The translations under genes and the position numbers were made by a program. The notes below the pieces were generated by a model. The model saw nothing but the letters and a program-made list of their open reading frames with translations, was not told where the DNA came from and did not search any database. A stretch of DNA of 64,000 nt from Dysosmobacter sp. Marseille-Q4140 (GTDB lineage: Bacteria; Bacillota; Clostridia; Oscillospirales; Oscillospiraceae), in contig CP073694.1 in the NCBI GenBank assembly GCA_018228705.1, positions 1,240,001 to 1,304,000 of the forward strand, given 5' to 3'. This document shows positions 32,919-61,408 of the stretch, piece after piece (the first letter of the stretch is position 1; each line of letters starts with the position of its first letter).

Positions 32919-32934
32919 GTTAGCGGATACTAAC
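32919..32934. promoter_or_regulatory. GTTAGC-type operator, box 1
   Basis: GTTAGC-GGAT-ACTAAC (11 of 12 arm positions match the perfect palindrome). It lies between the divergent ABC pair 1 and an AraC gene and may serve both. On the minus strand a TAAAAT lies right after it. Confidence 0.75.
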
Positions 32935-33034
32935 CAACATCCATCCTACCGGCAAAACAGCAGTATCGCAAGGCTTTGGGCGCGGTTCCGGCTGATTGGG
33001 GTGGAGATGTGGCTGATCGAGGTGGTGACAGGTT

Positions 33035-34042
33035 ATGGCGGCAAACAAAGACTTGGAGCAGCAATATGGCCGGGCGATGGAGGAACACGGGTTTCTTCCA
33101 GATCCGGAGAACCGGCGTTACGGCTCCATGGGGCTGTGCTGGCGGCACACCTCCCAGCAGGGCGGCGGTTTTTTCTGGACCTACGGGCAGCAGGATCTCT
33201 ATACCATCAAGATCCATGATTTCTTTTTCCATGAGGATCAGCTGCTGGAGTTCCATTGGCCGGAGAGTCTCAGTGTCACCTGGTATGAATCCATTTCCGG
33301 GGAGGAGTTCTCCCCCTGCCGCCGTCTTGTTCCAGGCTGTGTCAAAAGTTTTATCGGAGGTCGGGAACCATACCGGGCGCTCATCCACAGGCAGATCCCC
33401 ATCGTTTCCATTGGCGTGGAGATCACCCCGGCTTACTACCGGGATTATCTGCGCCGCCAGTTTCCCCAGGAGTATCAAAGCCTGCTGGAGTCTTTTCAAA
33501 CGCTGGATCAGACAGAACACTTCCCAGAAATGGTGCAGCTCTTGAAACAGGTGCGCGACTACCGGTGGGAGGGGCTTCCCGCCCGTTTGTTTTATGATGG
33601 GAAGGTGGCGGAGGCGGTGGCGCTGGTGGCAGAGCGGCACCTGAAGCGCAAGAACCGCCGTTCTGTCAGTGCGGAGGATATGGTACGGCTGGCTGATGTG
33701 GCAGCCTTCATCACGGCCCACTGTGCGGGTGAACTGCCGCTGGAACGGCTCAGCCGTATTGGCTGCATGAGCATTTCCAAGCTGAAGGATGCCTTCCATG
33801 TCCGGTATGGCTGCACGATTACCCAGTACATTCAGGGGCAGCGCACGGAGCAGGCTGGGCGGCTACTGCGGGAAACTGACCTGCCGGTGAGTCAGGTGGC
33901 GGCCATTGTTGGGTATCAGAATCCCAGCCGTTTCGCGGAGATCTTCCGGCGAAACACCGGACGCTCCCCTGCGGAATACCGCAGAGCATGCTGGAATTCC
34001 TTCACGGAGGTAAACGATATGGAAAGGAAAGATTCTTTATGA
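33035..34042 (+). CDS. AraC family regulator
   Basis: A 335-residue protein. Residues 1-190 form a sensor domain (YGSMGLCWRHTSQQGGGFFWTYGQQDLYTIKIHDFFF), and two helix-turn-helices lie at about 240-330 (LERLSRIGCMSISKLKDAF; VSQVAAIVGYQNPSRFAEIFRRNTGRSPAEYR). It is a paralogue of the gene at 37885, sharing the sensor domain. By analogy with YbtA-like regulators it may sense the ligand carried by the neighbouring transporter. It is divergent from ABC pair 1 and coupled to the hydrolase. Confidence 0.88.
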   Translation: MAANKDLEQQYGRAMEEHGFLPDPENRRYGSMGLCWRHTSQQGGGFFWTYGQQDLYTIKIHDFFFHEDQLLEFHWPESLSVTWYESISGEEFSPCRRLVPGCVKSFIGGREPYRALIHRQIPIVSIGVEITPAYYRDYLRRQFPQEYQSLLESFQTLDQTEHFPEMVQLLKQVRDYRWEGLPARLFYDGKVAEAVALVAERHLKRKNRRSVSAEDMVRLADVAAFITAHCAGELPLERLSRIGCMSISKLKDAFHVRYGCTITQYIQGQRTEQAGRLLRETDLPVSQVAAIVGYQNPSRFAEIFRRNTGRSPAEYRRACWNSFTEVNDMERKDSL

Positions 34043-34791
34043 AAATACAGTATTTTGGAGATCCATCTAATCCCAAAATCGTTGTTCTGCACCCCATGCT
34101 TCTGGACGGGAAAAGTATGCTGCCTCTGCTGGGCGAACTGCGGAACAGTCATTGTGTGATCGCGCCGGATCTGACAGGCCATGGAACAGATACTGGGATC
34201 TTTCAAAGTGCCCAACAAGAGGCAGCAACGCTGGCCGGCTGGCTGACAACGCAGGGATGGATTGATCTGAAGTTAGTGTTTGGTGCATCCATCGGTGCCG
34301 TGGTGGCGATGCAGTTGATTGCCATGCCCACATTCAAAGTTCATACCGCAGTCTTAGAGGGGTGCCCCCTCCATTCCAATGCTGCTTTTCTACGGATGAT
34401 AGCGACCCGTATGTTTCTGTCAAAACATCGGAAAGCACAGCAACATCCCGGTTTGTCTGCACAGCGGATGACGAAAATCTATGGGGAGACGCTCGGCCTT
34501 ATCATGGGGCACACCTTTGAACAAATTCGTCCGGAAACTTTGCAAGCCATCGCTGCCGCCTGTTCGGACTGCACCTTTCCCAACTATCCAAAGGAGTTGG
34601 AAGCTCACCTGTTTTTTGAGTATGGCAGTGAGGACATCAGCGCCAAGACCGCGCGCAGGGTTGTCTCAAAGCACTATCCGTCTGCTTCCTTTACAATCCG
34701 GGAAGGCTATGTTCACTGCCAATATCCCGCCGTTCTGGGAGAGCAGTATTCCAAGGTATTGGAGGAATACCTCGCCAGGGAACTTCACTAA
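34039..34791 (+). CDS. Alpha/beta hydrolase
   Basis: A 250-residue protein starting at an ATG overlapping the AraC stop. The nucleophile elbow is GASIGAVVA (about residues 90-98, G-x-S-x-G), an early LHPMLLDGKSM loop could be the oxyanion region, and a late His in GYVHCQYPA is a candidate for the triad. In a metallophore setting such enzymes can open ester-linked siderophores to release iron, which would fit here, but the substrate is not shown by the sequence. Confidence 0.75.
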   Translation: MKIQYFGDPSNPKIVVLHPMLLDGKSMLPLLGELRNSHCVIAPDLTGHGTDTGIFQSAQQEAATLAGWLTTQGWIDLKLVFGASIGAVVAMQLIAMPTFKVHTAVLEGCPLHSNAAFLRMIATRMFLSKHRKAQQHPGLSAQRMTKIYGETLGLIMGHTFEQIRPETLQAIAAACSDCTFPNYPKELEAHLFFEYGSEDISAKTARRVVSKHYPSASFTIREGYVHCQYPAVLGEQYSKVLEEYLARELH

Positions 34792-34804
34792 TAGAACCCA
34801 AGAG

Positions 34805-34838
34805 GCCGCATGGGGAACATTCCACCATGCGGCTTTTT
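34805..34838 (+). terminator. Rho-independent terminator
   Basis: GCCGCATGG (34805-34813) and CCATGCGGC (34825-34833) followed by TTTTT; it ends the AraC-hydrolase unit. Confidence 0.85.
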
Positions 34839-34844
34839 CAATCG

Positions 34845-36365
34845 TCAGCAATCGGCAGAACAGAATCGGCTTTTCCGGTGTTCTATCCGTCCCGGCCTGC
34901 TTTCTGAAATGGAGAACAATTCTCTCAATGTAGGGAGAGCGTCCATGGTAACAGGCACATCGTCGGGCATTTCTCCTTCATCAAAGTGGAGGATGCGGGA
35001 ACAGGTACGACTGACAAATTCAAAATCATGAGTGACAATAAAGATGACTTTTCCCATATCAGACAGCCGCCGGATCAGACCCGCAACCTGTGTCATGCTA
35101 TCAAAATCCAGCCCGCTGGTCGGCTCGTCAAACACCAGCAGGTCTTTCCCACAAATCATGCTGACCGCTACCGCCACCCGCTGCTTTTGACCTCCGGACA
35201 GGGTATTGGGGTGGCGGTCTCTGAATGGGGCCAGGGCCAACTCTTCCAGTGTTGCGTCAACGAGCGTCTGTTTCGGATTGCGGATACCGAATGTACATTC
35301 TGACTCCACACTATCCGCAAAAAGCTCGTAGTTCACATCCTGCATGACCATATAGGAATGCCGCAGGCGATCTTTGTGATCCATGGACAGACCGTTCCAA
35401 AAGAATTGACCATCACAGGCCTTGTGAAGCCCGCACAAAGCACGGGAAAAGGTCGTTTTTCCGGCCCCATTGTGGCCAACGACGCCAATTACCTCTCCCT
35501 TTGCTGCTGTAAGGTTGATGTCGTGCAAAATGGTCCTCTTCTTATAGTGAAGGGCTACATTGTTAAGTTCCAAGATAGGATCTGAGACAGGCGCAAGGGA
35601 ATGATTCCGTGGTGGGAGAACACGATGCAAATCAATCGCTCGAAGGCCCATTTGTTCCCGGGTATCCTCCGACAGCTGCCGAAATGCTTCCGGCGTAAAG
35701 ACCTGTGTGATTTTCCCATGTTCCAAATACACAATCCGGTCCACCAGATCCATCAAATAGTACAACCTATGTTCTGCAATCAATATGGTTTTTCCCTGCG
35801 ATTTGATCAGCCTGAGATGTTCTCCCAATTCTTGAATGGAACGCATATCCAAATTGGAGGACGGTTCATCCAAAAGATATATTTGAGGATTCATCGCATA
35901 GACCGAGGCAAATGCTATCTTTTGCTTTTCTCCACCGGATAACTCGAAGATGTTGCGATTACGGAGGTTTTCAATGTGCAGTTCTGCCGATGTACGATCC
36001 ACGCGTTCTCTCAGCTGGCAAACTGGAAGTGCTTGATTTTCAATACCAAAAGCGATCTCGCTGTCTATATCCACATTGAAAAACTGTGTCCTTGGGTTCT
36101 GAAACACCGATCCAACCTTTGCGGCAAGCTGATGCATGGGAAGATCACTGACTTCCTGACCATCCACCAGTACGCTGCCCGCCAGTTCTCCTGCGTAGAA
36201 TTGCGGGATCAAACCGTTTACAAGCCTCGTGATGGTGGTCTTCCCGCAGCCGCTCCGGCCACAGAACAGCACACATTCTCCGTCCTCTATGGTCAGGTTG
36301 ATGTCTTGCAGCCCGTCTCCTTTTTGTCCTTGATAAGTAAATGACACACGCTTTAACTCAATCAT
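34845..36365 (-). CDS. ECF transporter double ATPase (module 1)
   Basis: The start is the ATG at 36365, overlapping the EcfT stop; the protein has 506 residues and two complete ABC ATPase domains in one chain. Domain 1: Walker A GRSGCGKT (36-43), LSGGEKQK, IYLLDEPSSN. Domain 2: GHNGAGKT, LSGGQKQR, LLVFDEPTSG. Fused EcfA-A' ATPases power group-specific ECF importers. The substrate is set by the S component at 37084. The last gene of the S-T-A operon. Confidence 0.92.
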   Translation of the reverse strand: MIELKRVSFTYQGQKGDGLQDINLTIEDGECVLFCGRSGCGKTTITRLVNGLIPQFYAGELAGSVLVDGQEVSDLPMHQLAAKVGSVFQNPRTQFFNVDIDSEIAFGIENQALPVCQLRERVDRTSAELHIENLRNRNIFELSGGEKQKIAFASVYAMNPQIYLLDEPSSNLDMRSIQELGEHLRLIKSQGKTILIAEHRLYYLMDLVDRIVYLEHGKITQVFTPEAFRQLSEDTREQMGLRAIDLHRVLPPRNHSLAPVSDPILELNNVALHYKKRTILHDINLTAAKGEVIGVVGHNGAGKTTFSRALCGLHKACDGQFFWNGLSMDHKDRLRHSYMVMQDVNYELFADSVESECTFGIRNPKQTLVDATLEELALAPFRDRHPNTLSGGQKQRVAVAVSMICGKDLLVFDEPTSGLDFDSMTQVAGLIRRLSDMGKVIFIVTHDFEFVSRTCSRILHFDEGEMPDDVPVTMDALPTLRELFSISESRPGRIEHRKSRFCSADC

Positions 36366-37087
36366 CCCAGCAGCCCCTTTCCATAAAGCCCGACAACCAA
36401 CGCGCCTGCAAAGCAAAAGACTGCCGCAATGTCCATCAAACCAATATGGATCTGCACCAGACAAGTTCGAGGCTTTGGGTTTTCAATGCCGCGGGTGATG
36501 GAAGCGATGGACAGTTCATCCGCCGCTTTGGATGCCGCCATCATCAACGGAACATAGATACACTCCACCGTTATTCCGGGATGTGTCAGGAGCCCCTTAA
36601 GCGAAGGTGAGACGTCCCGCATCCGCATCGCATCCTTGATAAACCGCCAATCCTCCTGAATGGTAGGGATATAACGCAGCATGACGGCCAAGGGGATTAC
36701 CAGCTTTTGGGGTGCATGGATGCGATTCATCGCCGAGAGGAATTCGCTAACCTTTGTAGTGGAGACGACAATGCCGGACAGCATCCCGCAGGGGTAGACC
36801 TTATGGAACAACCCTAAAAAAGCGATAAACATGGTGCGCCAAGTTCCGGTCATGGTATCCAAAATCCAGAAGGTGAGCAGAACGATCAGCGCGTAGAACA
36901 GCACTCCTTTCCAGGCATACTTCCACTTTCCAAAGCAAATGCCGAGCAGCCCGATCAGCACCACAAGACCCAGTTCATAGAATAAGGATGGAGCCATCAT
37001 GGCAGAAAGGATACACAACAGGAGCAATAATATCTTCGTTCTGGGGTCCAGCCACAGTCCACGCCTGGATAACGCTCCGCCAATCAT
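36362..37087 (-). CDS. ECF transporter T component (module 1)
   Basis: A 241-residue membrane protein with about five to six helices and the two coupling motifs of EcfT that bind the ATPases: AMRMRDV (near 150) and ASITRGIEN (near 203). It links the S component to the ATPase. Overlaps both neighbours by four bases, so the three subunits are co-translated. Confidence 0.9.
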   Translation of the reverse strand: MIGGALSRRGLWLDPRTKILLLLLCILSAMMAPSLFYELGLVVLIGLLGICFGKWKYAWKGVLFYALIVLLTFWILDTMTGTWRTMFIAFLGLFHKVYPCGMLSGIVVSTTKVSEFLSAMNRIHAPQKLVIPLAVMLRYIPTIQEDWRFIKDAMRMRDVSPSLKGLLTHPGITVECIYVPLMMAASKAADELSIASITRGIENPKPRTCLVQIHIGLMDIAAVFCFAGALVVGLYGKGLLG

Positions 37088-37695
37088 GCGGTGATCCCAG
37101 CCTTTTCAAACTGCTTTTTCAGCAACTTTCCACCGATCCAACCACTGAACGCAGCAATCGCCAGCGTTCCGATAATGATGACAGCCAATAGCCAGGAAGG
37201 AGCAGACGCGCTCATTGTGTCAATATAGGACTGTTCCGTGCCGTTTTCCAGCATCGTGCTGGCCCAGCCTTGCGGATCAATAAAAAACACCACATAGGTA
37301 TAAACGCTGCCCAGCGACATCAGCATATAGGACAGCAGATTGACTACCTTGTTGCGGTAATGTCCCGCACCAGCCACCAGATCCGCAATGATTCCCATCC
37401 CGATATAGCCTAAAGAAAAGGCCCAGTGCATTCCGGTAACAAACCAGATGATTCCCATAACGATGCCAAGAATGGTGACACTCCACCGCTTCTGCACCTT
37501 AGCGATCATCAGAAGATACACGGGACCACACAGCAGGGCTGCGCCTATCGGCATATAGAATGTCAAAACTGGGTTTGGTGCAAAGAAAATACCGCCGATC
37601 ATGGTAAACACCAAGAAAATTGCGCTGAAAATGCCGGTTGTCACAAGATCCTTGATAGTGAGACTCTTTTTTGCGGGATTGATTTGATTGCTCAT
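37084..37695 (-). CDS. ECF transporter S component, MptD/Trep_Strep family (module 1)
   Basis: A 203-residue membrane protein with five or six helices of the MptD/Trep_Strep family of putative ECF S components: LTIKDLVTTGIFSAIFLVFTM at the start and GAGHYRNKVVNLLSYMLMSLG in the middle. The family is found with metal, haem or siderophore uptake loci in streptococci and Clostridia; its ligand has not been defined generally. The gene is preceded by box 2. Confidence 0.85.
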   Translation of the reverse strand: MSNQINPAKKSLTIKDLVTTGIFSAIFLVFTMIGGIFFAPNPVLTFYMPIGAALLCGPVYLLMIAKVQKRWSVTILGIVMGIIWFVTGMHWAFSLGYIGMGIIADLVAGAGHYRNKVVNLLSYMLMSLGSVYTYVVFFIDPQGWASTMLENGTEQSYIDTMSASAPSWLLAVIIIGTLAIAAFSGWIGGKLLKKQFEKAGITA

Positions 37696-37752: not shown

Positions 37753-37768
37753 GTTAGATATGGCTAAC
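37753..37768. promoter_or_regulatory. GTTAGC-type operator, box 2
   Basis: GTTAGA-TATG-GCTAAC, in the divergent region between the ECF module 1 and an AraC gene. On the minus strand a TATAAT (complement of 37770-37775) ends two bases before the box, so the box covers the expected start site. Confidence 0.8.
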
Positions 37769-37884
37769 CATTATATATAATTACACCATGCACAACCTAC
37801 TTTCAATCGTTTGGAGCGAGGTTCGTCCTATCATTTCAAAAATTCGTCTAATCATTGCAAAACAAGGGAGGCGTATCTATTGTA

Positions 37885-38850
37885 ATGACCGGTATCATCG
37901 AGCAATACTATGCCCCATTACTGAAAAAGCACGGTTTTGTACCGGAACCAGATAATGATCAGTATGGTCCTCTGGGGCTTTGCTGGAAGCTATCTCCGGA
38001 AGTTGGCGAAGGTTCCTATTGGACCTACGGACAAAGGGATCTGTTCGACATCAAGATACACAACTTCTCTTTCAATAAGGATTTTATGCTGGAATTTGAT
38101 CTCCCGGAATGTCTCAGTATTACCCGTTACGATTCCATCTCCGGTGAAGAGTTGTCGCCGTATCGCCGGTTGTCAGCCGGATGTATCAAGACCTATGTGG
38201 GCGGATACAAGCCATATCAAGTAATCGTCCACAAAAATATACCGGTTCGATCCATAGGCATCGAGATCACCCCTGCATATTATGAGGATTATCTGAAAAA
38301 ACAATATCCAGAAGTATATCGGAATCCTGTCGAGGCTTTTCGGGAAATCGACCAAACAACAGATTTCCCGGAAATGTACCGGCTTCTATCAGAACTACAG
38401 AGCTACCGTGGAACCGGAATTGCAGCTAAACTCTATTATGAGAGCAAGGTAGCCGAGGCGCTCTCTCTGGTGGTTGAATATCAAAAAAAGCGTTCAGTTT
38501 CTGATCATAAACTGGTTCCTCAGGATTTGGAACGGATTCAAACCGTCGCGGCCTATCTGAGTGATCATTACGCTGGTGAAGTGCCCATAGAACGCCTGGC
38601 ACAAATTGCCTGCATGGGTACGACAAAGCTCAAAAGCAGCTTCAAGAAGGTCTATGGCTGCACGATCACAGAGTATATACAGCAGCGCCGCATGAGTCAG
38701 GCAGAATATCTGCTGGCTCATACCGATCTGCAAATTGGTCAGATTGCTCAAACGATAGGATATTCTACATCCAGCCGGTTTGCGGAACTGTTTCGAAGAA
38801 GCACCGGCCTGCTCCCGCTGGAGTACAGGAAAATGGCAAATCGGAAATGA
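37885..38850 (+). CDS. AraC family regulator
   Basis: About 321 residues from the ATG at 37885 (GGGAGG fourteen bases upstream; an in-frame TTG at 37855 is possible). The sensor domain (YGPLGLCWKLSPEVGEGSYWTYGQRDLFDIKIHNFSFN) is clearly homologous to that of the regulator at 33035. The C-terminal double HTH contains IERLAQIACMGTTKLKSSFKKVYG and IGQIAQTIGYSTSSRFAELFRR. It is divergent from ECF module 1, sharing box 2, and likely controls it. Confidence 0.88.
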   Translation: MTGIIEQYYAPLLKKHGFVPEPDNDQYGPLGLCWKLSPEVGEGSYWTYGQRDLFDIKIHNFSFNKDFMLEFDLPECLSITRYDSISGEELSPYRRLSAGCIKTYVGGYKPYQVIVHKNIPVRSIGIEITPAYYEDYLKKQYPEVYRNPVEAFREIDQTTDFPEMYRLLSELQSYRGTGIAAKLYYESKVAEALSLVVEYQKKRSVSDHKLVPQDLERIQTVAAYLSDHYAGEVPIERLAQIACMGTTKLKSSFKKVYGCTITEYIQQRRMSQAEYLLAHTDLQIGQIAQTIGYSTSSRFAELFRRSTGLLPLEYRKMANRK

Positions 38851-38885: not shown

Positions 38886-38927
38886 AGTATGTGGAGAGGC
38901 AAATCTGCCTCCCCACATACTGTTTTT
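38886..38927. terminator. Bidirectional terminator
   Basis: AGTATGTGG and CCACATACT arms with an inner AGGCA/TGCCT stem; T-runs occur on the plus side. It separates converging AraC and ABC genes. Confidence 0.8.
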
Positions 38928-40671
38928 ATATCCGCCAGCCCTCGGCCCGCTGTCGGATCTCGATAAAGTTCCGGTAAGTTCCCTCCTGGCTCATCAGCTC
39001 CTGATGGGTGCCCTGCTGAGCAATGCGGCCATCCTCCACCACTAAAATCCGGTCAGCATTCTGGATCGTAGCCAGACGGTGGGCGATGGTGATGATGGTC
39101 TTCCCCCGCACCAAAGCAGAGAGCGCCTCCTGGATCTCATGCTCATTCTCCGGGTCCACGCTGGCGGTGGCCTCGTCCAGAATGACAATGGGGGCATCCT
39201 TCAGCAGACATCGGGCAATGGAAATCCGCTGCTTTTCTCCGCCGGAGAGGTTGGAGCCGCCTTCTCCCACCATGGTGTCGTACCCTTGGGGCAGTGCCAT
39301 GATAAAGTCATGGCAGCGGGCCGCTTTGGCCGCGGCGATCACTTCCTCCTCAGCGGCATCCGGACGGCCAAAACGGATGTTATTGCGGATGGTGTCGTGG
39401 AACAGATACACATTCTGAAATACCATAGCAATGTTGCGCAAAAGGCTGTCGCAGGTCATCTTCCGGATGTCATGGCCGCCCACGGTGATGCGTCCCTGAT
39501 CCACGTCATAAAACCGGGCCAGCAGCGCGCAGAGGGTGCTCTTCCCGCTGCCGGACGGCCCTACAATGGCGGTGGCGCTGTTTTGCGGCAGCTGGAAGGA
39601 AACATCGTGGATCACCTCCCGTGTTCCGTAACCGAAGGAGACATGGTCGAAGCAGATGTCGTAATGCTCCAAAGAGATGTCTTTCCCATCCTGATCCGGC
39701 AGTTCCGTTCCCTCCAGTTCTTCCAGACGGTCCAGCTCCGAGTCCGTGACAGAAAGGATGTGGGCGGCGTCGTTGATGGACTCCACACTGCCGAAGATCG
39801 TGAAGGAAAACATGGCAGCCATCAGGAGCACCGGCAGCTCCAAGGTTCCGTTCATAGTCTGCCAGCCGGCGGTGAGCACCAGGCCAACAGCTGCGGCCTT
39901 CAGAGAAAACAGGTGCAGGCAGTTCCAAGGCACAAAGCCAAACTCGTTTTTGATACGGATGTCCTTATTGGCCCGGCACGCCTCAAAAAACCGCTGGGAG
40001 GACACCCCCTCCTGGCCAAAGGATTTGACCACGGGCAGGCCGTGGATGTACTCAATGGCCGCCCCGGACAATGCCTCCTGGGCCCGATGTCCCACCGGAG
40101 CGGTGCGGGCACTCTGCCGCCCGATGCCGCGGAGGGCAAAGGCGGACAGCAGCACGCCCACCACTGCCACCAGCGCCGCCTCCGGGCAGAAGAACGCCAT
40201 GCACAAAACGATGACCAGTACCTGCAGATAGCCGTTGATGACTGCATCCACCATCTTCATGCTCTGCAGCTCCAGGGTACTCAGTTCCGTAGTCAGAGCA
40301 GCCAGAATGTCGCCCAGGTTATTCTTGGAGAAATACCCCAAGGAAACCCGTTTGAGCAGGTCACCAAGTTCCAGTCTCTGCTGCGCCGCCCGCTCTGTTC
40401 CGATACTCTCCTGGAGCCGGTTTTTCCAGTAAGCACACACGAAGCGCAAAACGATCAGCAGGATGATCCCGCCCAGGCACAGCCAGGGGAGCCTGGCGTC
40501 CAGCGCCGTCCCCTCCTGGGCACTCTCGATGACCAGCCCAAGGGCCCAGGCCGCCAGCATCACCGGCCCGGCGGCGGCCCAGGTGGCAAGAAACGAACAG
40601 AGGCTTCCGAGATACAGCCGTCTGTGGTACCCCTTTGTCCAACGCAGAATCCGATTCATACTCCGAAACAT
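38926..40671 (-). CDS. ABC transporter, exporter fold (pair 2, second subunit)
   Basis: A 581-residue half-transporter from the ATG at 40671, with GGAGG seven bases upstream. Six helices span about 15-290. Walker A is GPSGSGKST, signature LSGGEKQR, Walker B IVILDEATASVDPE, switch His in ITIAHRL. It is the last gene of a six-gene unit that begins with ECF module 2. Its relatives at 50800 and 57582 share the DEATA[SN]VD variant, so the second subunits of pairs 2-4 form one subfamily. Confidence 0.87.
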   Translation of the reverse strand: MFRSMNRILRWTKGYHRRLYLGSLCSFLATWAAAGPVMLAAWALGLVIESAQEGTALDARLPWLCLGGIILLIVLRFVCAYWKNRLQESIGTERAAQQRLELGDLLKRVSLGYFSKNNLGDILAALTTELSTLELQSMKMVDAVINGYLQVLVIVLCMAFFCPEAALVAVVGVLLSAFALRGIGRQSARTAPVGHRAQEALSGAAIEYIHGLPVVKSFGQEGVSSQRFFEACRANKDIRIKNEFGFVPWNCLHLFSLKAAAVGLVLTAGWQTMNGTLELPVLLMAAMFSFTIFGSVESINDAAHILSVTDSELDRLEELEGTELPDQDGKDISLEHYDICFDHVSFGYGTREVIHDVSFQLPQNSATAIVGPSGSGKSTLCALLARFYDVDQGRITVGGHDIRKMTCDSLLRNIAMVFQNVYLFHDTIRNNIRFGRPDAAEEEVIAAAKAARCHDFIMALPQGYDTMVGEGGSNLSGGEKQRISIARCLLKDAPIVILDEATASVDPENEHEIQEALSALVRGKTIITIAHRLATIQNADRILVVEDGRIAQQGTHQELMSQEGTYRNFIEIRQRAEGWRI

Positions 40672-40673
40672 CG

Positions 40674-42431: not shown

Positions 42432-42450
42432 AAAACCACTCCTTTCAAAA

Positions 42451-42488
42451 AATAGGGCATGGTGAGACATCTCTCACCATGCCCTATT
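42451..42488 (-). terminator. Intra-operon terminator/attenuator
   Basis: Perfect 17-base arms 42451-42467 and 42472-42488; in the minus direction TTTTTT follows at once. It lies between the AraC gene and the ABC pair 2. Confidence 0.85.
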
Positions 42489-43511: not shown

Positions 43512-43529
43512 TGCGGCTCAGCTCCTTTC

Positions 43530-45601: not shown

Positions 45602-45602
45602 G

Positions 45603-48004: not shown

Positions 48005-48045
48005 TTGATTTTCCTCCTGTTGTTCAATATTTGTGTACAATTCGT

Positions 48046-48738: not shown

Positions 48739-48756
48739 TTTTTCACCTTCACTCAC

Positions 48757-49542: not shown

Positions 49543-49555
49543 ATTCTCCTCCAAT

Positions 49556-49704
49556 CTAACCGTGACTGTATTCCGCAAAGTCGATCCGGACGATTTGCAG
49601 GTGCATCGGTCCGTCGGCCAGCTTCGCCAGCAGCTGACGGACGCAACCAAGAACCGTATAAGAATCTCCGGCACGGAGTTTTTCTCAATCTTGTATTTCT
49701 CCAT
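49556..49704 (-). pseudogene. Small gene ahead of the ZIP permease, apparently frameshifted
   Basis: An ATG at 49704 with GAGGA upstream opens MEKYKIEK, but the plausible rest (AGDSYTVLGCVRQLLAKLADGP, ending at a TAG at 49556-49558 just before the ZIP ribosome site) is in another frame. One extra A in the AAAAA run after codon 7 would give a 49-residue protein. As read, the frame runs on into the ZIP gene. I do not recognise the family. Confidence 0.45.
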
Positions 49705-49739: not shown

Positions 49740-49768
49740 ATTATAGTTAGCTATCGCTAACCCGTCAA
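49740..49768 (-). promoter_or_regulatory. Promoter of the ZIP-methyltransferase unit, spacer filled by box 4
   Basis: Minus-strand TTGACG (complement of 49763-49768) and TATAAT (complement of 49740-49745) with 17-base spacing. The spacer is box 4 itself. Confidence 0.85.
49746..49761. promoter_or_regulatory. GTTAGC-type operator, box 4 (perfect arms)
   Basis: GTTAGC-TATC-GCTAAC, both arms exact, lying between the -35 and -10 of the ZIP promoter. A bound repressor would block RNA polymerase directly. Confidence 0.88.
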
Positions 49769-52530: not shown

Positions 52531-54272
52531 ACCGTTTCACCCTCCTTTACGCCCATGTGAGCCTGCCATAGATCGGCGTACAACTGGCACTGCTGCAGCA
52601 GTTCTTCATGTGTTCCCTGCGTCTCGATGCTTCCGTCCTTCACCACCACGATCTGATCCGCGCCGGTAATGGTGGACAGGCGGTGGGCAATGATGATGAC
52701 TGTCTTGCCTTCCACCAGTTTTGCCACCGCCCGCTGAACCACCGCTTCATTCTCCGGATCAATATAGGCGGTGGCCTCGTCCAGAATCACCACGGGGGCG
52801 TTTTTCAGCATAGCCCGGGCGATGGCGATACGCTGCCGCTCTCCTCCGGAGAGATGGGCGCCTCCGCCGCCCACCCGGGTGTCATAGCCATGCTCCAACT
52901 GGCGGATGAAACCGTCGCATCCGGCGGCTTTGGCGACTTGTTCCACTTCTTGATCCGTGGCATTTACCCGGCCCATGCGGATATTTTCCCGGATGGTATC
53001 GTCAAAGAGGTAATTGTCCTGAGAAACAAAGGCCACCTGGTCATAGAGTTGTTCCAGCGGGATACGGCTTTCTTCCACGCCGCCCAGGGTAATGCGGCCC
53101 TCGGTCACATCCCAGAAACCGGCGATGAGCTTGGCAATGGTGGACTTGCCCGAACCGGAGGGACCAACCAAAGCGGTGAGGCTGCCGGCCGGAATGGTGA
53201 GGGAGATGTTGTGGAGGATCTCCTTGTCCTGGGCATACCCAAAGGAGACATGATCCAAGGCGATATCCGGTCTTCCCAGCTGTGCCGGCTGTGTTCCGTG
53301 ATCCTGCTCCGGCTTCAGGAGGATCTCGTCCACCGAGCCTACGATGGTACCTACCTTGGCAAGATTATCCACAAAGCCCATGGCAGCAATGAGAGGTCCC
53401 ACAATGCTCATGGACAGGATGATGGTGGTGAGAAATACCTCTGCGGACAAGCTGCCGTCCGTGTAGAAGATCCAGCCCACAGGCAGCACCGTAATAAGCG
53501 TGGTGGGAGCGATGGCATAGGCCAGCGCCATTCCGAACTGGCATTTCTTCATCCAGTTGTAGTAGTAGGCAGCATTGGCCCGTACCCGGGAGGAGAACTT
53601 CTCATAGGAGTTCTTTCCCTGATTGAAAGCCTTGATGACCTCAATGCCGCCGATGTACTCCACAATGGTCTCGTTCATGGCCTGGGTCGTCTCCACCGCA
53701 CCCTGATAGTCCTTGCCATAGCTGCCCATGATGGCCATCATAAAAGCCATGCCCACAGGAATGGACACCAGACTCAGCAATGCCATGCGCCAGTCCAGCG
53801 TAAACAGATACACGAGAACGCATACCGGCGCCAGCAGATTGGAGGTCATCTCTGGCAGCAGGTGGGCCAGTGTCGTCTCCATACTCTCCACCTGATCTAC
53901 CACGATCTGTTTGAGCCGTCCGCTGGAGGTGTCCAGAATGTCTCCCAAGGGTAAGCGGGGCATTTTGGACAGAACCATCTTCCGGATGTCCCGCAGGATC
54001 TGGAAGGTGGCCTTGTGGGAGAGGGAGAGCGCCAGATTGTAAAGCAGAGTTTTGGCCAGATAGCCACCAAGGGCCACCATGCACCACAGAAGATAGAAGT
54101 TCCAGTCCCGCTGCCCGGTGAGAAGCGCTACCAGGATACGCCCTGCCGAGAGATACGGCAGCAGACCCAGCAGGACACCCGCCACCGCGCAGAAGATGGC
54201 GGCAATCAGGCCACCGTGATGATCCTTGCCCAGCTGCCACAACCGCAGCAGCGGGCTTTGTGTTTGCTGCAT
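52527..54272 (-). CDS. ABC transporter, exporter fold (pair 3, first subunit)
   Basis: A 581-residue half-transporter from an ATG with AAAGGAGG seven bases upstream. Walker A GPSGSGKST, LSGGERQR, VVILDEATAYIDPE and IIIAHRL are complete. The membrane domain includes MNETIVEYIGGIEVIKAFNQGK, closely like the same region of the first subunits in pairs 2 and 4 (NSIIVEYVEGIEVVKAFN; NNTIVEYINGMEVVKVFN). Box 5 lies 17 bases upstream. Confidence 0.87.
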   Translation of the reverse strand: MQQTQSPLLRLWQLGKDHHGGLIAAIFCAVAGVLLGLLPYLSAGRILVALLTGQRDWNFYLLWCMVALGGYLAKTLLYNLALSLSHKATFQILRDIRKMVLSKMPRLPLGDILDTSSGRLKQIVVDQVESMETTLAHLLPEMTSNLLAPVCVLVYLFTLDWRMALLSLVSIPVGMAFMMAIMGSYGKDYQGAVETTQAMNETIVEYIGGIEVIKAFNQGKNSYEKFSSRVRANAAYYYNWMKKCQFGMALAYAIAPTTLITVLPVGWIFYTDGSLSAEVFLTTIILSMSIVGPLIAAMGFVDNLAKVGTIVGSVDEILLKPEQDHGTQPAQLGRPDIALDHVSFGYAQDKEILHNISLTIPAGSLTALVGPSGSGKSTIAKLIAGFWDVTEGRITLGGVEESRIPLEQLYDQVAFVSQDNYLFDDTIRENIRMGRVNATDQEVEQVAKAAGCDGFIRQLEHGYDTRVGGGGAHLSGGERQRIAIARAMLKNAPVVILDEATAYIDPENEAVVQRAVAKLVEGKTVIIIAHRLSTITGADQIVVVKDGSIETQGTHEELLQQCQLYADLWQAHMGVKEGETV

Positions 54273-54288: not shown

Positions 54289-54304
54289 GTTAGTTATTGC
54301 TAAC
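54289..54304. promoter_or_regulatory. GTTAGC-type operator, box 5
   Basis: GTTAGT-TATT-GCTAAC, immediately before ABC pair 3 and after the terminator of the TetR gene. Confidence 0.8.
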
Positions 54305-55800: not shown

Positions 55801-55816
55801 GTTAGCAATAACTAAC
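55801..55816. promoter_or_regulatory. GTTAGC-type operator, box 6
   Basis: GTTAGC-AATA-ACTAAC, directly preceded by TAATAA (a possible -10) and 18 bases before the start of ABC pair 4. Confidence 0.8.
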
Positions 55817-55833: not shown

Positions 55834-57585
55834 GTGTTTCAAAAAGTCCTGCGCTACACTGGACGCCACCGGAAGACGACTTATGCCTCCATTCTGGTAC
55901 TGGTGGCCGGCGTGGCCATGAGCGTGCTGCCCTATTTCTTCCTCTACCGCCTGCTGCGGCCCCTGCTGACTGGGGGCAGTCTCACGTTGGAGGAAACCCT
56001 GTTCAACGCCGGGGCCATGGCTCTGTGCATGGTCCTCTACAGCCTTCTTTATGTGGAGGGGCTGGCTCTGTCTCATCGCTCCGCCTATCATACTTTGGAA
56101 AACCTCCGGCTCCATCTCCAGAGCAAGCTGGAAAAGCAGCCCCTGGGCGCGATCCAGGAGAAGGGCGTTGGAGTCTGGAAGAAGATGTTCATTGACGACA
56201 TTGAGAGCATGGAACTTCTGCTGGCCCACGCCCTGCCGGAAGGGCTGTCCAATCTGGCGGTGCCGGTGGTGGTATTTGCGGCCATGTTCCTCACGGACTG
56301 GAAGCTGGGTCTGCTTTCCCTCTGCTCCCTTCCGCTGGGCGTGCTGGCCATGGGCATGATGTACCGCTCCGGCATGAGCAAGATGGGAGACTACTACGCC
56401 GCCGGGCAGAAAATGAACAACACCATCGTGGAGTACATCAACGGCATGGAAGTCGTGAAAGTCTTCAACCGGGACGGAGAGTCCTATCACCGCTTTGAGA
56501 CCGATGTAAAAAACTACCGTGATTTTACGCTGGATTGGTTCCGGGCCTGCTGGCTGTGGATGGCCCTCTACACCAGCATTTTGCCCTGCGTGGCGCTGGT
56601 GCTGCTGCCAGCCGGCGGCTATCTGGTACTCACCGGCGCCTCCACCCTGCCGGATTACGCGCTGGTATTGTGCATGTCTTTTTCCGTGGGACCGCCTCTG
56701 ATCCGAGCCATGAACTTTATGTCGGTGCTGCCCCAGCTGAGCTACAAGATCGATCAAATGGAATCTCTGTTCAATATTCCGCCCCTGAAAGAAGGAAAAA
56801 CGGATTTCAACGGAAACGATTTGCAGATCCGCTTTGAGAATGTGCGGTTTTCTTATGAAAAGGACGAAGTCCTCCACGGCATCTCCTTCTCTGTCCCACA
56901 GGGGAGCCTTACCGCTTTGGTGGGAGAATCCGGCAGCGGGAAGTCGACCCTTACCAAGCTGCTGGTCCACTTTTACGATGTGACGGACGGACGCATCACG
57001 CTGGGGGGGCAAGACCTGCGAGAGATGTCCCTCGCCTCTCTGAATGAGCAGATCTCCTTCGTCGCGCAGGAGCAGTTCCTGTTCAACACCAGCCTGTTGG
57101 AGAACATCCGGCTGGGAAGACCCGGCGCCACCGACGAGGAGGTGCTGGCGGCGGCGGAACGGGCTCAATGCGGAGAGTTTCTGAAACGGCTGGAAAAAGG
57201 AATCTATACCATGGCCGGCGATGGCGGCAAAGGGCTTTCCGGCGGGGAGCGGCAGCGGATCGCCCTGGCCCGGGCGATTTTGAAGGACGCTCCCATCGTG
57301 GTGCTGGATGAGGCCACCGCTTTTTTGGACCCGGAGAATGAGGAGAAAATGAACGCCGCCATTGCCGAGGTGATCCGGGGCAAGACGGTCATCGTCATCG
57401 CCCACCGGCTTCAGTCCATTGCAGGTGCCGATCAGATCGTGGTGCTGGACCAGGGCAATGTGGCAGGGATCGGCCGCCACGATACATTGCGAAAGACTTG
57501 CCCCGCCTATGAAAAACTGTGGCGGGCTGCCGAGGGAGCCGCTGCCTGGCGTGTCTCTGCGGAGAAAGGAGGCGACGAGGCATGA
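55834..57585 (+). CDS. ABC transporter, exporter fold (pair 4, first subunit)
   Basis: A 583-residue half-transporter from a GTG with AAGGAG upstream. Six helices, Walker A GESGSGKST, signature LSGGERQR, Walker B IVVLDEATAFLDPE, IVIAHRL. The sequence and DEATAF variant place it with the first subunits of pairs 2 and 3. It overlaps its partner by four bases. Box 6 sits at the promoter. Confidence 0.87.
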   Translation: MFQKVLRYTGRHRKTTYASILVLVAGVAMSVLPYFFLYRLLRPLLTGGSLTLEETLFNAGAMALCMVLYSLLYVEGLALSHRSAYHTLENLRLHLQSKLEKQPLGAIQEKGVGVWKKMFIDDIESMELLLAHALPEGLSNLAVPVVVFAAMFLTDWKLGLLSLCSLPLGVLAMGMMYRSGMSKMGDYYAAGQKMNNTIVEYINGMEVVKVFNRDGESYHRFETDVKNYRDFTLDWFRACWLWMALYTSILPCVALVLLPAGGYLVLTGASTLPDYALVLCMSFSVGPPLIRAMNFMSVLPQLSYKIDQMESLFNIPPLKEGKTDFNGNDLQIRFENVRFSYEKDEVLHGISFSVPQGSLTALVGESGSGKSTLTKLLVHFYDVTDGRITLGGQDLREMSLASLNEQISFVAQEQFLFNTSLLENIRLGRPGATDEEVLAAAERAQCGEFLKRLEKGIYTMAGDGGKGLSGGERQRIALARAILKDAPIVVLDEATAFLDPENEEKMNAAIAEVIRGKTVIVIAHRLQSIAGADQIVVLDQGNVAGIGRHDTLRKTCPAYEKLWRAAEGAAAWRVSAEKGGDEA

Positions 57586-59321
57586 TCGCGCTGATGAAAC
57601 GAATCCTGTCCGTATCCGGCCCCTATCAGGGGCGGATCAAGCTGGCCTTTGTCTTTGCGTTCCTGAAGGCCATGCTGTCCAAGGCTCCCATCGGCTTGTC
57701 TTTCCTGGCCCTGGGTGCCTTTCTCCAGGGAACCATAACGGCACGGCTGTGCTTGTGGCTGGCGGTGGGCACGGTGGGCTGCGTGCTGCTGGAGTGCCTG
57801 TGCCAGAATATCGCTGACCGGCTCCAGGCCGCGGCGGGCTATATGGTATTCGCCGATCTGCGCATGGAGCTGGGGCGGCATCTGCGCCGCCTGCCCATGG
57901 GCTATTTCACAGAGGGCAACATCGGCAAAATCAGTTCCGTTCTGTCCACCGACATGGTGTTTATTGAGGAGAACTGTATGCACGACATTGCCAACATGAT
58001 GAGCTATACCTTTGCCCAGGCCATTCTGGTGCTGTGGCTGGCCTTCCTGAATTCCTGGCTGGGACTGGCCGCCTTGGTGGTGGTAGGGATCATCTGGCAG
58101 CTGGGCCGCGCTTCCCTGGGGAGCACCCTGGCTCACTCTGATGTCCGACAGGAGCAGAGCGAGGCTCTCACACGGGCGGTACTGGACTATGTGGAGGGCA
58201 TCGGCATCGCCAAGACCTTCAACCTGCTGGGAGAGCGTTCCGCGCAGCTCACCGAGAATTTCGCCCGGAGCCGCAAGGTCAGCATTGCGTTCGAGAAAAG
58301 CCAGGCCCCCTGGATGCGGGCCCTTTATCTGGTGTGCGGTCTGGGCTCGGTGCTGATAATTCCCCTGTCTCTCTGGCTCTATGGCCGGGGGCAACTCTCC
58401 ATCACCTTCCTGCTGGGTGTCCTGCTCTTCGTCTTTGACCTCTTCGGCCCCATTAAGGCACTCTACAGCCAAGCCACCCGCCTGACGGTGATGAACGCCT
58501 GCATGGACCGGATCGAGGCGGTACTGGCCCAACCAGAACTACCTGACCGGGGCCGGGAGACCTTACCCAAAGCCGGCGGTGCCCCGGAGGTAGAGTTCCG
58601 AAATGTCACCTTTGCCTACGGGGAGAAAGAGGTACTGCATGATGTCTCCTTCACGCTGGAGAGAAACCGGATGCTGGCCCTGGTGGGCCCCTCCGGCGGC
58701 GGCAAGAGTACGGTAGCCAACCTGCTCTCCCGGTTCTGGGATGTGAAACGGGGGCAGGTTCTGGTACGGGGCAGGGACATCCGCGATATTCCTCTTTCTG
58801 ATCTGATGGATCAGATCTCTATGGTGTTCCAGCGGGTCTACTTATTCCAGGATACCGTCTATAACAACATCGCCATGGGACGGACAGACGCCACACGGGA
58901 GGAGGTCTATGAGGCGGCCAGAAAAGCCCGATGCTATGACTTCATCATGGAGCTGCCCGACGGCTTTGACACGGTCATCGGCGAAGGTGGAGCCAGCCTA
59001 TCCGGCGGAGAGCGACAGCGAATCTCCATTGCTCGCTGCATTCTGAAGGATGCTCCCATCGTCATTCTGGATGAGGCCACTGCCAGCGTGGACGCCGACA
59101 ACGAGAGCTACATCCAGGAGGCCATCACCCAGCTGTGCCGGGGTAAGACCCTGCTGGTCATTGCCCACCGGCTCAATACCATTCGCCACGCCGATGAGAT
59201 CCTGGTCATCGACCAGGGGCGCATCGTCCAGGCCGGCGACCATGACAAACTTATGGCGGAGGAGGGCATTTACCGCCGCTTCATCACCGCCCGCTCCAAT
59301 CCCACCAGTTGGTGCCGGTAA
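57582..59321 (+). CDS. ABC transporter, exporter fold (pair 4, second subunit)
   Basis: 579 residues from the ATG at 57582, within an ATGA overlap. Walker A GPSGGGKST, signature LSGGERQR, Walker B IVILDEATASVDADN, LVIAHRL. The membrane domain includes MGYFTEGNIGKISSVLSTD and LDYVEGIGIAKTFNLLGE. Both ATP sites of the pair look intact. A hairpin follows at 59342. Confidence 0.87.
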   Translation: MIALMKRILSVSGPYQGRIKLAFVFAFLKAMLSKAPIGLSFLALGAFLQGTITARLCLWLAVGTVGCVLLECLCQNIADRLQAAAGYMVFADLRMELGRHLRRLPMGYFTEGNIGKISSVLSTDMVFIEENCMHDIANMMSYTFAQAILVLWLAFLNSWLGLAALVVVGIIWQLGRASLGSTLAHSDVRQEQSEALTRAVLDYVEGIGIAKTFNLLGERSAQLTENFARSRKVSIAFEKSQAPWMRALYLVCGLGSVLIIPLSLWLYGRGQLSITFLLGVLLFVFDLFGPIKALYSQATRLTVMNACMDRIEAVLAQPELPDRGRETLPKAGGAPEVEFRNVTFAYGEKEVLHDVSFTLERNRMLALVGPSGGGKSTVANLLSRFWDVKRGQVLVRGRDIRDIPLSDLMDQISMVFQRVYLFQDTVYNNIAMGRTDATREEVYEAARKARCYDFIMELPDGFDTVIGEGGASLSGGERQRISIARCILKDAPIVILDEATASVDADNESYIQEAITQLCRGKTLLVIAHRLNTIRHADEILVIDQGRIVQAGDHDKLMAEEGIYRRFITARSNPTSWCR

Positions 59322-59466: not shown

Positions 59467-59482
59467 GTTAGCAAATGCTAAC
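59467..59482. promoter_or_regulatory. GTTAGC-type operator, box 7 (perfect arms)
   Basis: GTTAGC-AAAT-GCTAAC, covering the predicted transcription start. Confidence 0.88.
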
Positions 59483-59504: not shown

Positions 59505-60191
59505 ATGGATGACAATAAGCAGTTTTGGGAGCGGTTTTCACGGCACTACTCTGGTTTCATGCGCCGCTCTCAGGCAACCTATCAACAGATATGCAAAGCA
59601 ATGCGTCCTTTTCTGAAACGGGATATGGATGTGCTGGAGTTGGCCTGCGGAACAGGTCAGCTGTCCGTGCCGCTGTCTCCATGTGTCCGGAGCTGGGAGG
59701 CAACCGACTTTTCATCTGAAATGATCCGCCAGGCCAAAAAGCAGGTGCATTCGTCCCGGCTTCATTTCTCCGTCCAGGACGCCACCAAGCTGCCCTACGG
59801 CCTGGAGAGCTTCGATGCGGTTGTGATCTCTAACGCTCTCCATGTCATGCCGCACCCGGAAAAGGCTCTGGCGGAGGCCTGGCGGGTTCTGAAGCCGGGG
59901 GGATGGCTGTTCGCCCCCACCTTTGTCTGGGGCAAAAGCCGAAGCGCCAGACTCCGGCTCTGGTTCATGAGGCTGTCAGGCTTTCGGGTGTACCATGTCT
60001 GGACTGCCGGGGAGCTGATGGCATACCTGTCCGAGTGCGGCTATTCCATCGTTCGCCATCAGCTTCTCGGAAGTTCGTTGGCGCCGCTGTGCTGTCTGAT
60101 AGCCAGGAAGATCCCGGATGAACGGACTGCGGCACGGCAGGCTACCGTCCGGTCCGCACAGCACGATGATCCAAAAGTCAAGAAGGAGTGA
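59505..60191 (+). CDS. SAM-dependent methyltransferase
   Basis: 228 residues from the ATG at 59505, with AGGTGA eight bases upstream; upstream in-frame starts lie inside box 7. The class I core is intact: VLELACGTGQLSVPL (about 42-56), WEATDFSSEMIRQAK, FSVQDATKLPYGLESFDAVVISNALHV and VLKPGGWLFAPTF. UbiE/ArsM-like in overall pattern, but without the cysteines needed for arsenite. First gene of a metal-regulated unit with an HMA protein. Confidence 0.85.
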   Translation: MDDNKQFWERFSRHYSGFMRRSQATYQQICKAMRPFLKRDMDVLELACGTGQLSVPLSPCVRSWEATDFSSEMIRQAKKQVHSSRLHFSVQDATKLPYGLESFDAVVISNALHVMPHPEKALAEAWRVLKPGGWLFAPTFVWGKSRSARLRLWFMRLSGFRVYHVWTAGELMAYLSECGYSIVRHQLLGSSLAPLCCLIARKIPDERTAARQATVRSAQHDDPKVKKE

Positions 60192-60197
60192 TAGAAC

Positions 60198-60443
60198 ATG
60201 TGGAAGTACACAGTGGAAGTCAACGGAATGATGTGCGGGATGTGCGAGGCTCATGTCAATGACGCCGTGCGCAAAGCCTGCCCGGTCAAAAAGGTGAGTT
60301 CTTCCCGGAGCAAAAACCAGACCGTGATCCTCTCTGAAACAGAGCTGGACACGGAGGCTGTTATGAACGCCATTCGCAGCACGGGGTATGAGGTCGGCAC
60401 GATCCAGAAGGAGCCGTACAAAAAGAGAGGATTGTTTGGTTGA
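60198..60443 (+). CDS. Heavy-metal-associated (HMA) domain protein
   Basis: An 81-residue protein made of one ferredoxin-like HMA domain. The metal loop is GMMCGMCEAHV (about 10-20), a variant of GMxCxxC, and LDTEAVMNAIRSTGYEV is the last strand-helix part. HMA domains bind Cu(I) or Zn(II) and act as chaperones or transporter domains. It follows the methyltransferase by six bases. Confidence 0.88.
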   Translation: MWKYTVEVNGMMCGMCEAHVNDAVRKACPVKKVSSSRSKNQTVILSETELDTEAVMNAIRSTGYEVGTIQKEPYKKRGLFG

Positions 60444-60822: not shown

Positions 60823-61218
60823 TCATTGTCCGTGCGCATCTTCCCGCATTTTCGTTACCTGCTCCAAGTGCGCCTGCACCGCCGCGAAGGATTTTTCGCT
60901 GATCACATGCTCGATCCGGCAGGCATCCTCGGTCGCAGTCTCCTCGTCCACGCCCAATTCCATCAGCATCTGGCTCAACACCGTGTGGCGGGTATACATC
61001 GTCTTAGCAATGGCAAGCCCGGTCTCCGTCAGGGTGATCGCTCCGTCAGCATCCACATTCACATATCCGTCCTTTTTCAGAATGGACATGGCTCTGCTGA
61101 CGCTGGGCTTGGTAAAGCCCAACCGCTCTCCCACATCGATAGCCCGAACAAAGGTGCTGTTCTGTGAGAGAATATAGATGGTTTCCAGATACATCTGGCC
61201 AGACTCGTGAATCGCCAT
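60823..61218 (-). CDS. DtxR/MntR family metal-dependent repressor
   Basis: 131 residues from the ATG at 61218, with TGGAGG five bases upstream; the longer open frame has no ribosome site. The N-terminus is a winged helix (SGQMYLETIYILSQNSTFVRAIDVGERLGFTKPSVSRAMSILKKDGYV), and the dimer/metal domain follows with MYTRHTVLSQMLMELGVDEETATEDACRIEHVISEKSFAAV, which carries the His, Glu, Asp and Cys ligands of the family. No SH3 domain, as in MntR. It is the only such regulator in the window and the best candidate to bind the GTTAGC-type boxes. Confidence 0.92.
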   Translation of the reverse strand: MAIHESGQMYLETIYILSQNSTFVRAIDVGERLGFTKPSVSRAMSILKKDGYVNVDADGAITLTETGLAIAKTMYTRHTVLSQMLMELGVDEETATEDACRIEHVISEKSFAAVQAHLEQVTKMREDAHGQ

Positions 61219-61308
61219 AGGAACCTCCAAAAAACGGGCGTTTTGCTTATTATAACACAGGCGTCCGACAAGCGCCATTTTTTCTGTCAGCAAAATCCAT
61301 CCGTCCTC

Positions 61309-61337
61309 TTGACAAGCGAATTTGCCCTGTATATAAT
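61309..61337 (+). promoter_or_regulatory. Consensus promoter of the DUF3793-flavodoxin unit
   Basis: TTGACA at 61309-61314 and TATAAT at 61332-61337, spacer 17, both hexamers exact; box 8 begins eight bases after the -10. Confidence 0.85.
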
Positions 61338-61344
61338 TGCATTA

Positions 61345-61360
61345 GTTAGCTACCGCTAAC
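61345..61360. promoter_or_regulatory. GTTAGC-type operator, box 8 (perfect arms)
   Basis: GTTAGC-TACC-GCTAAC, starting at the predicted +1 of a fully consensus promoter. Confidence 0.88.
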
Positions 61361-61392
61361 CAAGAGGCGGCAGCTATATATTTGACACTTTA

Positions 61393-61408
61393 GTTAGCTA
61401 TTGCTAAC
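61393..61408. promoter_or_regulatory. GTTAGC-type operator, box 9 (perfect arms)
   Basis: GTTAGC-TATT-GCTAAC, 48 bases downstream of box 8, in the 5' leader of the DUF3793 gene. Two operators imply tight or cooperative repression. Confidence 0.88.

What the first reader, a model, noticed from the sequence alone, without database searches (positions are those of the whole stretch)
32919..61408. Nine copies of a GTTAGC-N4-GCTAAC palindrome define a local regulon
Boxes at 32919, 37753, 46227, 49746, 54289, 55801, 59467, 61345 and 61393 share two 6-base arms around a variable 4-base centre; four have exact arms (49746, 59467, 61345, 61393). All lie between genes, at the promoters of nearly every operon in the metal island, and I saw none in the first 29 kb. 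Three overlap clear promoters as repressor sites would. The shape resembles DtxR/IdeR operators (TTAGGTTAG-type half sites), and a DtxR/MntR-type gene sits inside the regulon at 60823. The binding protein is inferred.
Basis: partly seen in the sequence, partly recalled or inferred. Interest (0 to 1): 0.9.

Follow-up and report, generated by a model that had tools for sequence, protein, structure and literature searches.

The report
Iron-repressor operators on a mobile island
Nine copies of one short DNA palindrome are very probably switches that shut off a large set of iron-scavenging genes when iron is plentiful; many gut Clostridia use the same switch, and here it sits on a stretch of DNA that has spread between species.

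Summary
In detail: GTTAG-N6-CTAAC occurs exactly nine times in the window, at the stated places, none in the first 29 kb; simulations gave a mean of 0.0. Across related copies the arms hardly change (4 of 660 positions) while centre (65 of 396) and flanks (538 of 5280) do. The boxes are very probably operators of the short DtxR-type repressor at 60823-61218, which keeps DtxR's primary-site residues M, C, E, H. The best-studied relative is EqbA of Streptococcus equi: its operator holds the same core and is bound with Fe2+ or Zn2+, less with Mn2+ (PMC3672683, passages). The regulon is not local: the box also sits by feoB, flavodoxin, FecCD, ZIP and dtxR genes in related genomes, and among 147 Clostridia it is in excess only in the group with a strong EqbA-type hit. 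Iron is the likely signal. The island carries EqbHIJ- and YbtPQ-like importers and is about 93-97% identical over long stretches in other genera and in a second family. Against: four genomes have the boxes but no DtxR that I could find.

The parts
32919..32934 (.). Box 1, between the ABC pair (32865 minus) and araC (33035 plus); starts 2 nt after a predicted -10
37753..37768 (.). Box 2, between the ECF operon (37695 minus) and araC (37855 plus); close to the -10 of a predicted promoter on each side
46227..46242 (.). Box 3, 24 nt before the second ECF operon (46202 minus); no scored promoter
49746..49761 (.). Box 4, fills the -35/-10 spacer of the predicted promoter of the ZIP/methyltransferase genes
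54289..54304 (.). Box 5, 16 nt before an ABC pair (54272 minus); no scored promoter
55801..55816 (.). Box 6, 17 nt before an ABC pair (55834 plus); no scored promoter
59467..59482 (.). Box 7, starts 4 nt after a predicted -10, 22 nt before a methyltransferase gene (59505 plus)
61345..61360 (.). Box 8, starts 8 nt after the -10 of a perfect TTGACA-17-TATAAT promoter (61309-61337 plus), between the regulator gene and DUF3793-flavodoxin
61393..61408 (.). Box 9, second box of the same divergent region, 48 bp from box 8
60823..61218 (-). Regulator gene: 131-aa DtxR-family protein without SH3 domain, EqbA-like
   Evidence: Pfam PF01325 and PF02742; start and length; ligand residues
61481..62032 (+). 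DUF3793 gene
   Evidence: start codon
62068..62499 (+). Flavodoxin gene
59505..60443 (+). Methyltransferase gene, then a small heavy-metal-associated (HMA) protein gene at 60198-60443
55834..59321 (+). ABC pair with fused permease and ATPase
50800..54272 (-). ABC pair with fused permease and ATPase, YbtPQ/IrtA-like by the one member compared (52527-54272)
46340..49704 (-). ZIP transporter and three methyltransferase-type genes
42531..46202 (-). ECF transporter (Trep_Strep S, CbiQ-like T, duplicated ATPase) followed by araC
38926..42470 (-). ABC pair behind the ECF genes, no box of its own
34845..37695 (-). ECF transporter (Trep_Strep S, CbiQ-like T, duplicated ATPase)
37855..38850 (+). araC-type gene
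33035..34791 (+). araC-type gene and alpha/beta hydrolase gene
29400..32865 (-). ABC pair with fused permease and ATPase, YbtPQ-like by the one member compared (29400-31118)
16947..17023 (+). tRNA-Ala (CGC) whose 3' end marks the start of the DNA shared with CE91-St43

Best explanation
The nine palindromes are operators of an EqbA-type, iron-dependent DtxR-family repressor, the 131-aa product of 60823-61218 (probably together with chromosomal relatives in the host). With enough iron the Fe2+-loaded dimer binds GTTAGC-N4-GCTAAC in or next to the promoters and shuts off siderophore and metal importers (two EqbHIJ-like ECF systems, YbtPQ-like ABC pairs, a ZIP transporter), their companion genes, DUF3793-flavodoxin and its own gene; iron starvation releases them. 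Many Clostridia use the same operator, so this mobile island fits the iron control of its recipients. Shown here: the motif, its conservation and placement, its co-occurrence with this kind of regulator, the ligand residues. Shown by others for EqbA: metal-dependent binding and repression. Inferred: that this protein binds these boxes and that iron is the signal.
For: Nine exact boxes, 0.0 expected. Arms conserved against centre and flanks. Boxes upstream of the regulator's own gene: 50 of 84 dtxR-type genes, controls 0 of 84 for all 8 patterns; dereplicated 21 of 52, controls 0 of 52 for all 11. Box within 15 of 28 feoB loci, 9 control patterns 0 of 28. All 52 relatives with DtxR at E <= 1e-25 have the box, 3 of 8 others do. 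In 147 Clostridia the excess over control is confined to the 76 genomes with a strong EqbA-type hit (331 v 143; 49 v 98 and 26 v 68 in the other two groups). Residues C102, E105, H106, H79 in 52 of 52. EqbA precedent with the same core and the same transporter modules (PMC3672683, PMC8754150, passages). Flavodoxin and feoB as targets point to iron.
Against: No binding or expression data for this protein. G010, G044, G053 and G154 have boxes, at feoB, flavodoxin, AraC or ABC genes, but no DtxR was found in them. 13 of 28 feoB loci and 31 of 52 dereplicated dtxR upstream regions have no exact box, and only 48 of the 76 strong genomes have more boxes than controls. Allowing 2 mismatches the separation weakens (26 of 52 v 1 to 13 of 52). 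EqbA's 36-bp palindrome is longer than the 16 bp conserved here. Position 10 varies (Met 34, Asn 12, Asp 5, Thr 1 of 52), so metal choice may vary.
Confidence: 0.87

Rival explanations
1. The boxes are DtxR-type operators but the sensed metal is manganese or zinc, an MntR-like regulon.
For: Best NCBIfam matches are MntR models; a ZIP transporter is in the regulon; EqbA also binds with Zn2+ and, less, Mn2+; 5 of 52 homologues have Asp at position 10.
Against: The MntR models score well below their cut-offs (85 v 153 bits). The Cys that PMC3672683 links to Fe2+ response is present in 52 of 52 homologues. Targets include feoB and flavodoxin.
Confidence: 0.09
2. Another regulator encoded in the island (TetR or AraC type) or elsewhere in the genome reads the boxes, not the DtxR protein.
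For: Two TetR and several AraC-type genes lie in the island. Four genomes have boxes without a DtxR that I could find.
Against: The class-wide excess follows the DtxR hit, and boxes lie before dtxR genes themselves in many genomes. The phyletic distribution of the TetR and AraC genes was not tested.
Confidence: 0.03
3. The palindromes act as RNA hairpins (terminators or attenuators) or are dispersed repeats without a regulatory role.
For: Three boxes overlap stems flagged as terminator-like (54288, 61393; 37751).
Against: Box 4 lies between -35 and -10, hence outside the predicted transcript; several boxes sit between divergent genes; the centre varies while the arms do not, and no longer repeat unit is shared between the boxes.
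Confidence: 0.01

Closest known systems
EqbA and the eqb locus of ICESe2, Streptococcus equi (PMC3672683 and PMC8754150, passages)
   Same: Short DtxR-type repressor without SH3 and with the Fe-type Cys; operator core GTTAG-N6-CTAAC; ECF S/T/duplicated-ATPase importer (EqbHIJ) and YbtPQ-like pair (EqbKL); carried on a mobile element.
   Different: One operator, a 36-bp palindrome, before a siderophore synthesis operon. Here there are nine shorter operators over several importer operons, and no synthetase domain in the genes scanned; the regulator has Met where EqbA has Asn.
IdeR/DtxR of Actinobacteria (PMC8464063, passages)
   Same: Fold, primary-site residues M, C, E, H; spacing equal to the one-dimer site TTAGG-N4-CCTAA.
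   Different: No SH3 domain; ancillary-site residues E83 and H98 replaced; no TTAGG half sites in the boxes.
023_CTn1 of Clostridioides difficile RT023 (PMC6814731, passages)
   Same: Mobile element of a gut clostridium carrying a DtxR/MntR-type gene and a cluster related to equibactin.
   Different: Carries siderophore synthesis genes; operators were not described in the passages seen and were not searched here.

Membership tests
EqbA-type iron repressor and operator | DtxR winged-helix plus metal/dimer domain, no SH3 domain | tested here: met
   131 aa, PF01325 and PF02742 only at high score
EqbA-type iron repressor and operator | Cys at the DtxR C102 position | tested here: met
   52 of 52 homologues including the window
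EqbA-type iron repressor and operator | Operator core GTTAG-N6-CTAAC next to promoters | tested here: met
   EqbA site as printed in PMC3672683
EqbA-type iron repressor and operator | Palindrome extended to 36 bp | tested here: not met
   Positions outside the 16 bp are weakly biased at most
EqbA-type iron repressor and operator | Sequence kinship with EqbA itself, shown by alignment or tree | not tested
   EqbA sequence was not fetched
EqbA-type iron repressor and operator | Fe2+-dependent DNA binding | not testable with these tools
   needs purified protein
Actinobacterial DtxR/IdeR | SH3-like third domain | tested here: not met
Actinobacterial DtxR/IdeR | TTAGG half sites (19-bp box or TTAGG-N4-CCTAA) | tested here: not met
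MntR | Asp and Glu at the D8 and E99 positions (recalled; Glu also in PMC3672683 passage) | tested here: not met
   Met and Cys in the window protein; NCBIfam MntR models below cut-off

The most novel reading that the evidence does not exclude
GTTAG-N6-CTAAC is a shared iron-control code of many Clostridia, read by short EqbA-type DtxR repressors, and a mobile 'siderophore piracy' island (importers without synthesis) exploits it: its operators fit both its own repressor and the native iron regulon of each recipient, so it is correctly controlled on arrival in distant genera and in another family. In a few lineages without a recognisable DtxR, another protein may have taken over the same operators.
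Probability: 0.55. Interest if true: 0.65.

Novelty: new variant of a known kind. Interest (0 to 1): 0.55.

Why it matters
It gives a concrete operator, a likely sensor and a target list for iron control in many gut Clostridia, searchable in any clostridial genome. The paper searches made here found no description of this operator outside S. equi (searches; an open-access library only). It also shows how horizontally moved uptake genes can arrive already wired to a recipient's own regulation, which can be tested directly.

Tried and rejected
Classic IdeR/DtxR box: absent. RNA hairpin: rejected on position and on the free centre. A hidden DtxR in the genomes with boxes but none found: for G010, G044 and G053 two Pfam models, a 19-row alignment of the whole genomes and a local HMM on fetched stretches gave only weak hits; G154 was tested with the alignment at E <= 1e-10 and the local HMM on its box loci only; ORFs near the boxes were listed but not annotated. 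Left unexplained. Printed E. coli MntR operator for comparison: two searches found no paper, so it is not used. Naming the window's host: not settled; the nearest held genome shares 25% of sampled 31-letter words, and a good part of that may be the island. Common element end in P. gallinarum: its tRNA-Ala is followed by different DNA. Papers: passages only of PMC3672683, PMC8754150, PMC6814731 and PMC8464063; only listings of all others.
Full report
Observation. The pattern search finds the nine boxes where reported, four with exact GTTAGC/GCTAAC arms and five with one mismatch. The invariant part is GTTAG-N6-CTAAC: nine in the window, none elsewhere in 64 kb, none at spacers 1, 4, 5, 7 or 8; 200 first-order simulations gave a mean of 0.0. 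At up to three mismatches there is no excess (18 v 15.4), so only near-exact sites count.

Conservation. Each box was compared with the distinct homologous segments found in 51 or so fetched loci: 1, 2, 4, 1, 10, 10, 16, 11 and 13 segments in the order of the boxes; two identical to the window were dropped, leaving 66. Arms differed at 4 of 660 compared positions (two of these are alignment gaps), the six centre positions at 65 of 396, the 40 nt on each side at 538 of 5280. The copies are related, so the printed p-values overstate certainty, and segments too diverged to align are not counted; but arms behaving unlike both centre and flanks is what a protein-bound palindrome looks like.

Placement. 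Box 49746 fills the spacer between TTGACG and TATAAT before the ZIP gene. Boxes 32919, 37753, 59467 and 61345 begin 2, 4, 4 and 8 nt after a predicted -10; the last follows the perfect TTGACA-17-TATAAT before DUF3793-flavodoxin. The promoter scans as a whole are only slightly above their shuffles (12 v 8.7 and 11 v 9.1), so promoters other than those two are tentative. Boxes 46227, 54289 and 55801 lie 24, 16 and 17 nt before gene starts, without a scored promoter.

Genes. The boxed operons encode two ECF transporters (Trep_Strep S component, CbiQ-like T, duplicated ATPase), ABC pairs with fused permease and ATPase, a ZIP transporter, AraC-type regulators, methyltransferases, a small HMA protein, DUF3793 and flavodoxin, and the regulator. 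A fourth ABC pair (38926-42470) lies behind the second ECF set without a box of its own. Two of the eight ABC genes were compared with PDB sequences: the best unfused matches were the siderophore importers YbtP/YbtQ (29400: YbtQ 273 bits, MsbA 232; 52527: YbtP 299, IrtA 280, Sav1866 249), although fused eukaryotic exporters scored higher in both. No siderophore synthetase domain appeared among the window genes scanned; not every ORF was scanned.

Regulator. The 60823 product has only the DtxR N-terminal and metal-binding domains at high score and starts best at ATG 61218 (131 aa, the length of many of its closest relatives). In an alignment of 52 homologues with DtxR, C102, E105, H106 and H79 are kept in 52 of 52; position 10 is Met in 34 (the window among them), Asn in 12, Asp in 5, Thr in 1; the ancillary-site residues E83 and H98 are Ser and Thr in the window.

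Who reads the box. (a) Of 84 dtxR-type genes, many near-identical, 50 have an exact box within 300 nt upstream and none of 8 control patterns occurs. After dereplication 21 of 52 do, controls 0 of 52 for all 11; with one mismatch 23, controls at most 1; with two mismatches 26, controls 1 to 13. (b) Of 28 feoB loci from nine genomes (30 loci given, 2 weak GTPase hits dropped) 15 hold a box, nine control patterns 0; 13 hold none. (c) Of 60 relatives 55 have the box. All 52 with a DtxR at E <= 1e-25 have it, 3 of the 8 others do; box totals against the reversed control are 255 v 49 and 16 v 7. (d) Of 147 Clostridia of at least 90% completeness, 76 have a hit at E <= 1e-40 (331 boxes v 143 control, 48 of 76 with more boxes than controls), 39 a weaker hit (49 v 98), 32 none at 1e-10 (26 v 68; one of them, G154, has 11 v 1). 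The excess follows the regulator.

What it controls elsewhere. Of 29 loci that one search gave (in the listed part one per genome), 15 have feoB within 1.5 kb, 2 flavodoxin/DUF3793, 1 ZIP, 1 ECF, 2 ABC, 1 dtxR alone, 2 AraC, 1 methyltransferase and 4 none of these; the 20 query proteins were of my choosing. Flavodoxin and feoB point to iron.

The known relative. EqbA of S. equi is a DtxR-like repressor without SH3 and with the Fe-type Cys (and Asn where DtxR has Met). Its operator, a 36-bp palindrome, contains GTTAG-ATGTAT-CTAAC. Binding needed the palindrome and was promoted by Fe2+ and Zn2+, less by Mn2+, not by Fe3+ or Cu2+; deletion raised eqbE transcript 13-fold and increased iron accumulation (PMC3672683, passages). 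EqbH, I and J are ECF S, T and duplicated ATPase (PMC8754150, passages) and EqbKL a YbtPQ-like pair (PMC3672683, passages): the same modules as here. The spacing also equals that of the one-dimer IdeR site TTAGG-N4-CCTAA (PMC8464063, passages).

The island. The regulator is 97-99% identical in 13 of 38 loci from genome contigs, in Flavonifractor, Fournierella, Gemmiger, Pseudoflavonifractor, Anaeromassilibacillus, Anaerofilum, Intestinimonas, Oscillibacter, an unnamed Oscillospiraceae isolate (CE91-St43) and [Clostridium] asparagiforme. Long DNA blocks of the window's 29-64 kb are about 93-97% identical in the four genomes compared over 116-120 kb (P. gallinarum, An112, CE91-St43, C. asparagiforme); each holds a different part. 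P. gallinarum is placed in Oscillospiraceae and C. asparagiforme in Lachnospiraceae. CE91-St43 also shares 17.0-19.0 and 22.5-23.8 kb (89-97%). In the window this shared DNA starts at the 3' end of a tRNA-Ala, in CE91-St43 at a tRNA-Leu. Two ArdA-type genes and an IS66 transposase lie at 19.8-26.7 kb. CE91-St43 has two large serine recombinases on the far side, 9-13 kb beyond the point matching the window's end, in DNA shared largely with P. gallinarum. I read this as a mosaic mobile element; its second end in the window's own genome is unknown, and transfer was not shown.

Fit with the recipient. In C. asparagiforme 12 of 18 boxes lie in 66 kb of 6.35 Mb around the island. Of the other six, one precedes a FecCD gene, one DUF3793-flavodoxin and one a further dtxR, 54% identical to this one, with both DtxR domains; the other three have none of my query iron genes right at the box. 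So this recipient uses the same code outside the island as well.

Against. G010, G044, G053 and G154 have boxes at feoB-, flavodoxin-, AraC- or ABC-type genes without a DtxR found. G010 is 81% complete, the others 97-99%, so missing contigs explain this poorly. There is no binding evidence for this protein, and the metal is inferred.

Verdict. New, as far as the searches made show, is the generality of the EqbA-type code and its use by a travelling island; the mechanism itself is of a known kind. Interest 0.55.

Noticed in passing
window 16947-23807: DNA shared with CE91-St43 begins exactly at a tRNA 3' end, tRNA-Ala here and tRNA-Leu there.
   Followed up: partly
window 19780-26737: IS66 transposase and two ArdA-type antirestriction genes, with a DUF4314 gene between them.
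   Followed up: no
L143:2889-6868 (CE91-St43): Two large serine recombinases side by side, possibly the mobility genes of the element.
   Followed up: partly
G010, G044, G053, G154 (L199-L211, L218-L238): Boxes at feoB, flavodoxin, AraC or ABC genes in genomes where no DtxR-family gene was found.
   Followed up: partly
window 61345 and 61393; L021, L023, L027, L030, L041, L119: Boxes upstream of dtxR genes often come in twos or threes 25-51 bp apart, perhaps for two dimers.
   Followed up: no
window 61481-62499; L068, L069, L126, L199, L236, L241: DUF3793 stands next to flavodoxin behind a box in several genomes; its function is unknown and it may belong to the iron-starvation response.
   Followed up: partly
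window 54348-54977 and 55045-55764: Two divergent TetR-type genes inside the island without boxes of their own.
   Followed up: no
window 46340-48756 and 59505-60191: Four methyltransferase-type genes under the iron boxes; their substrate is unknown.
   Followed up: no
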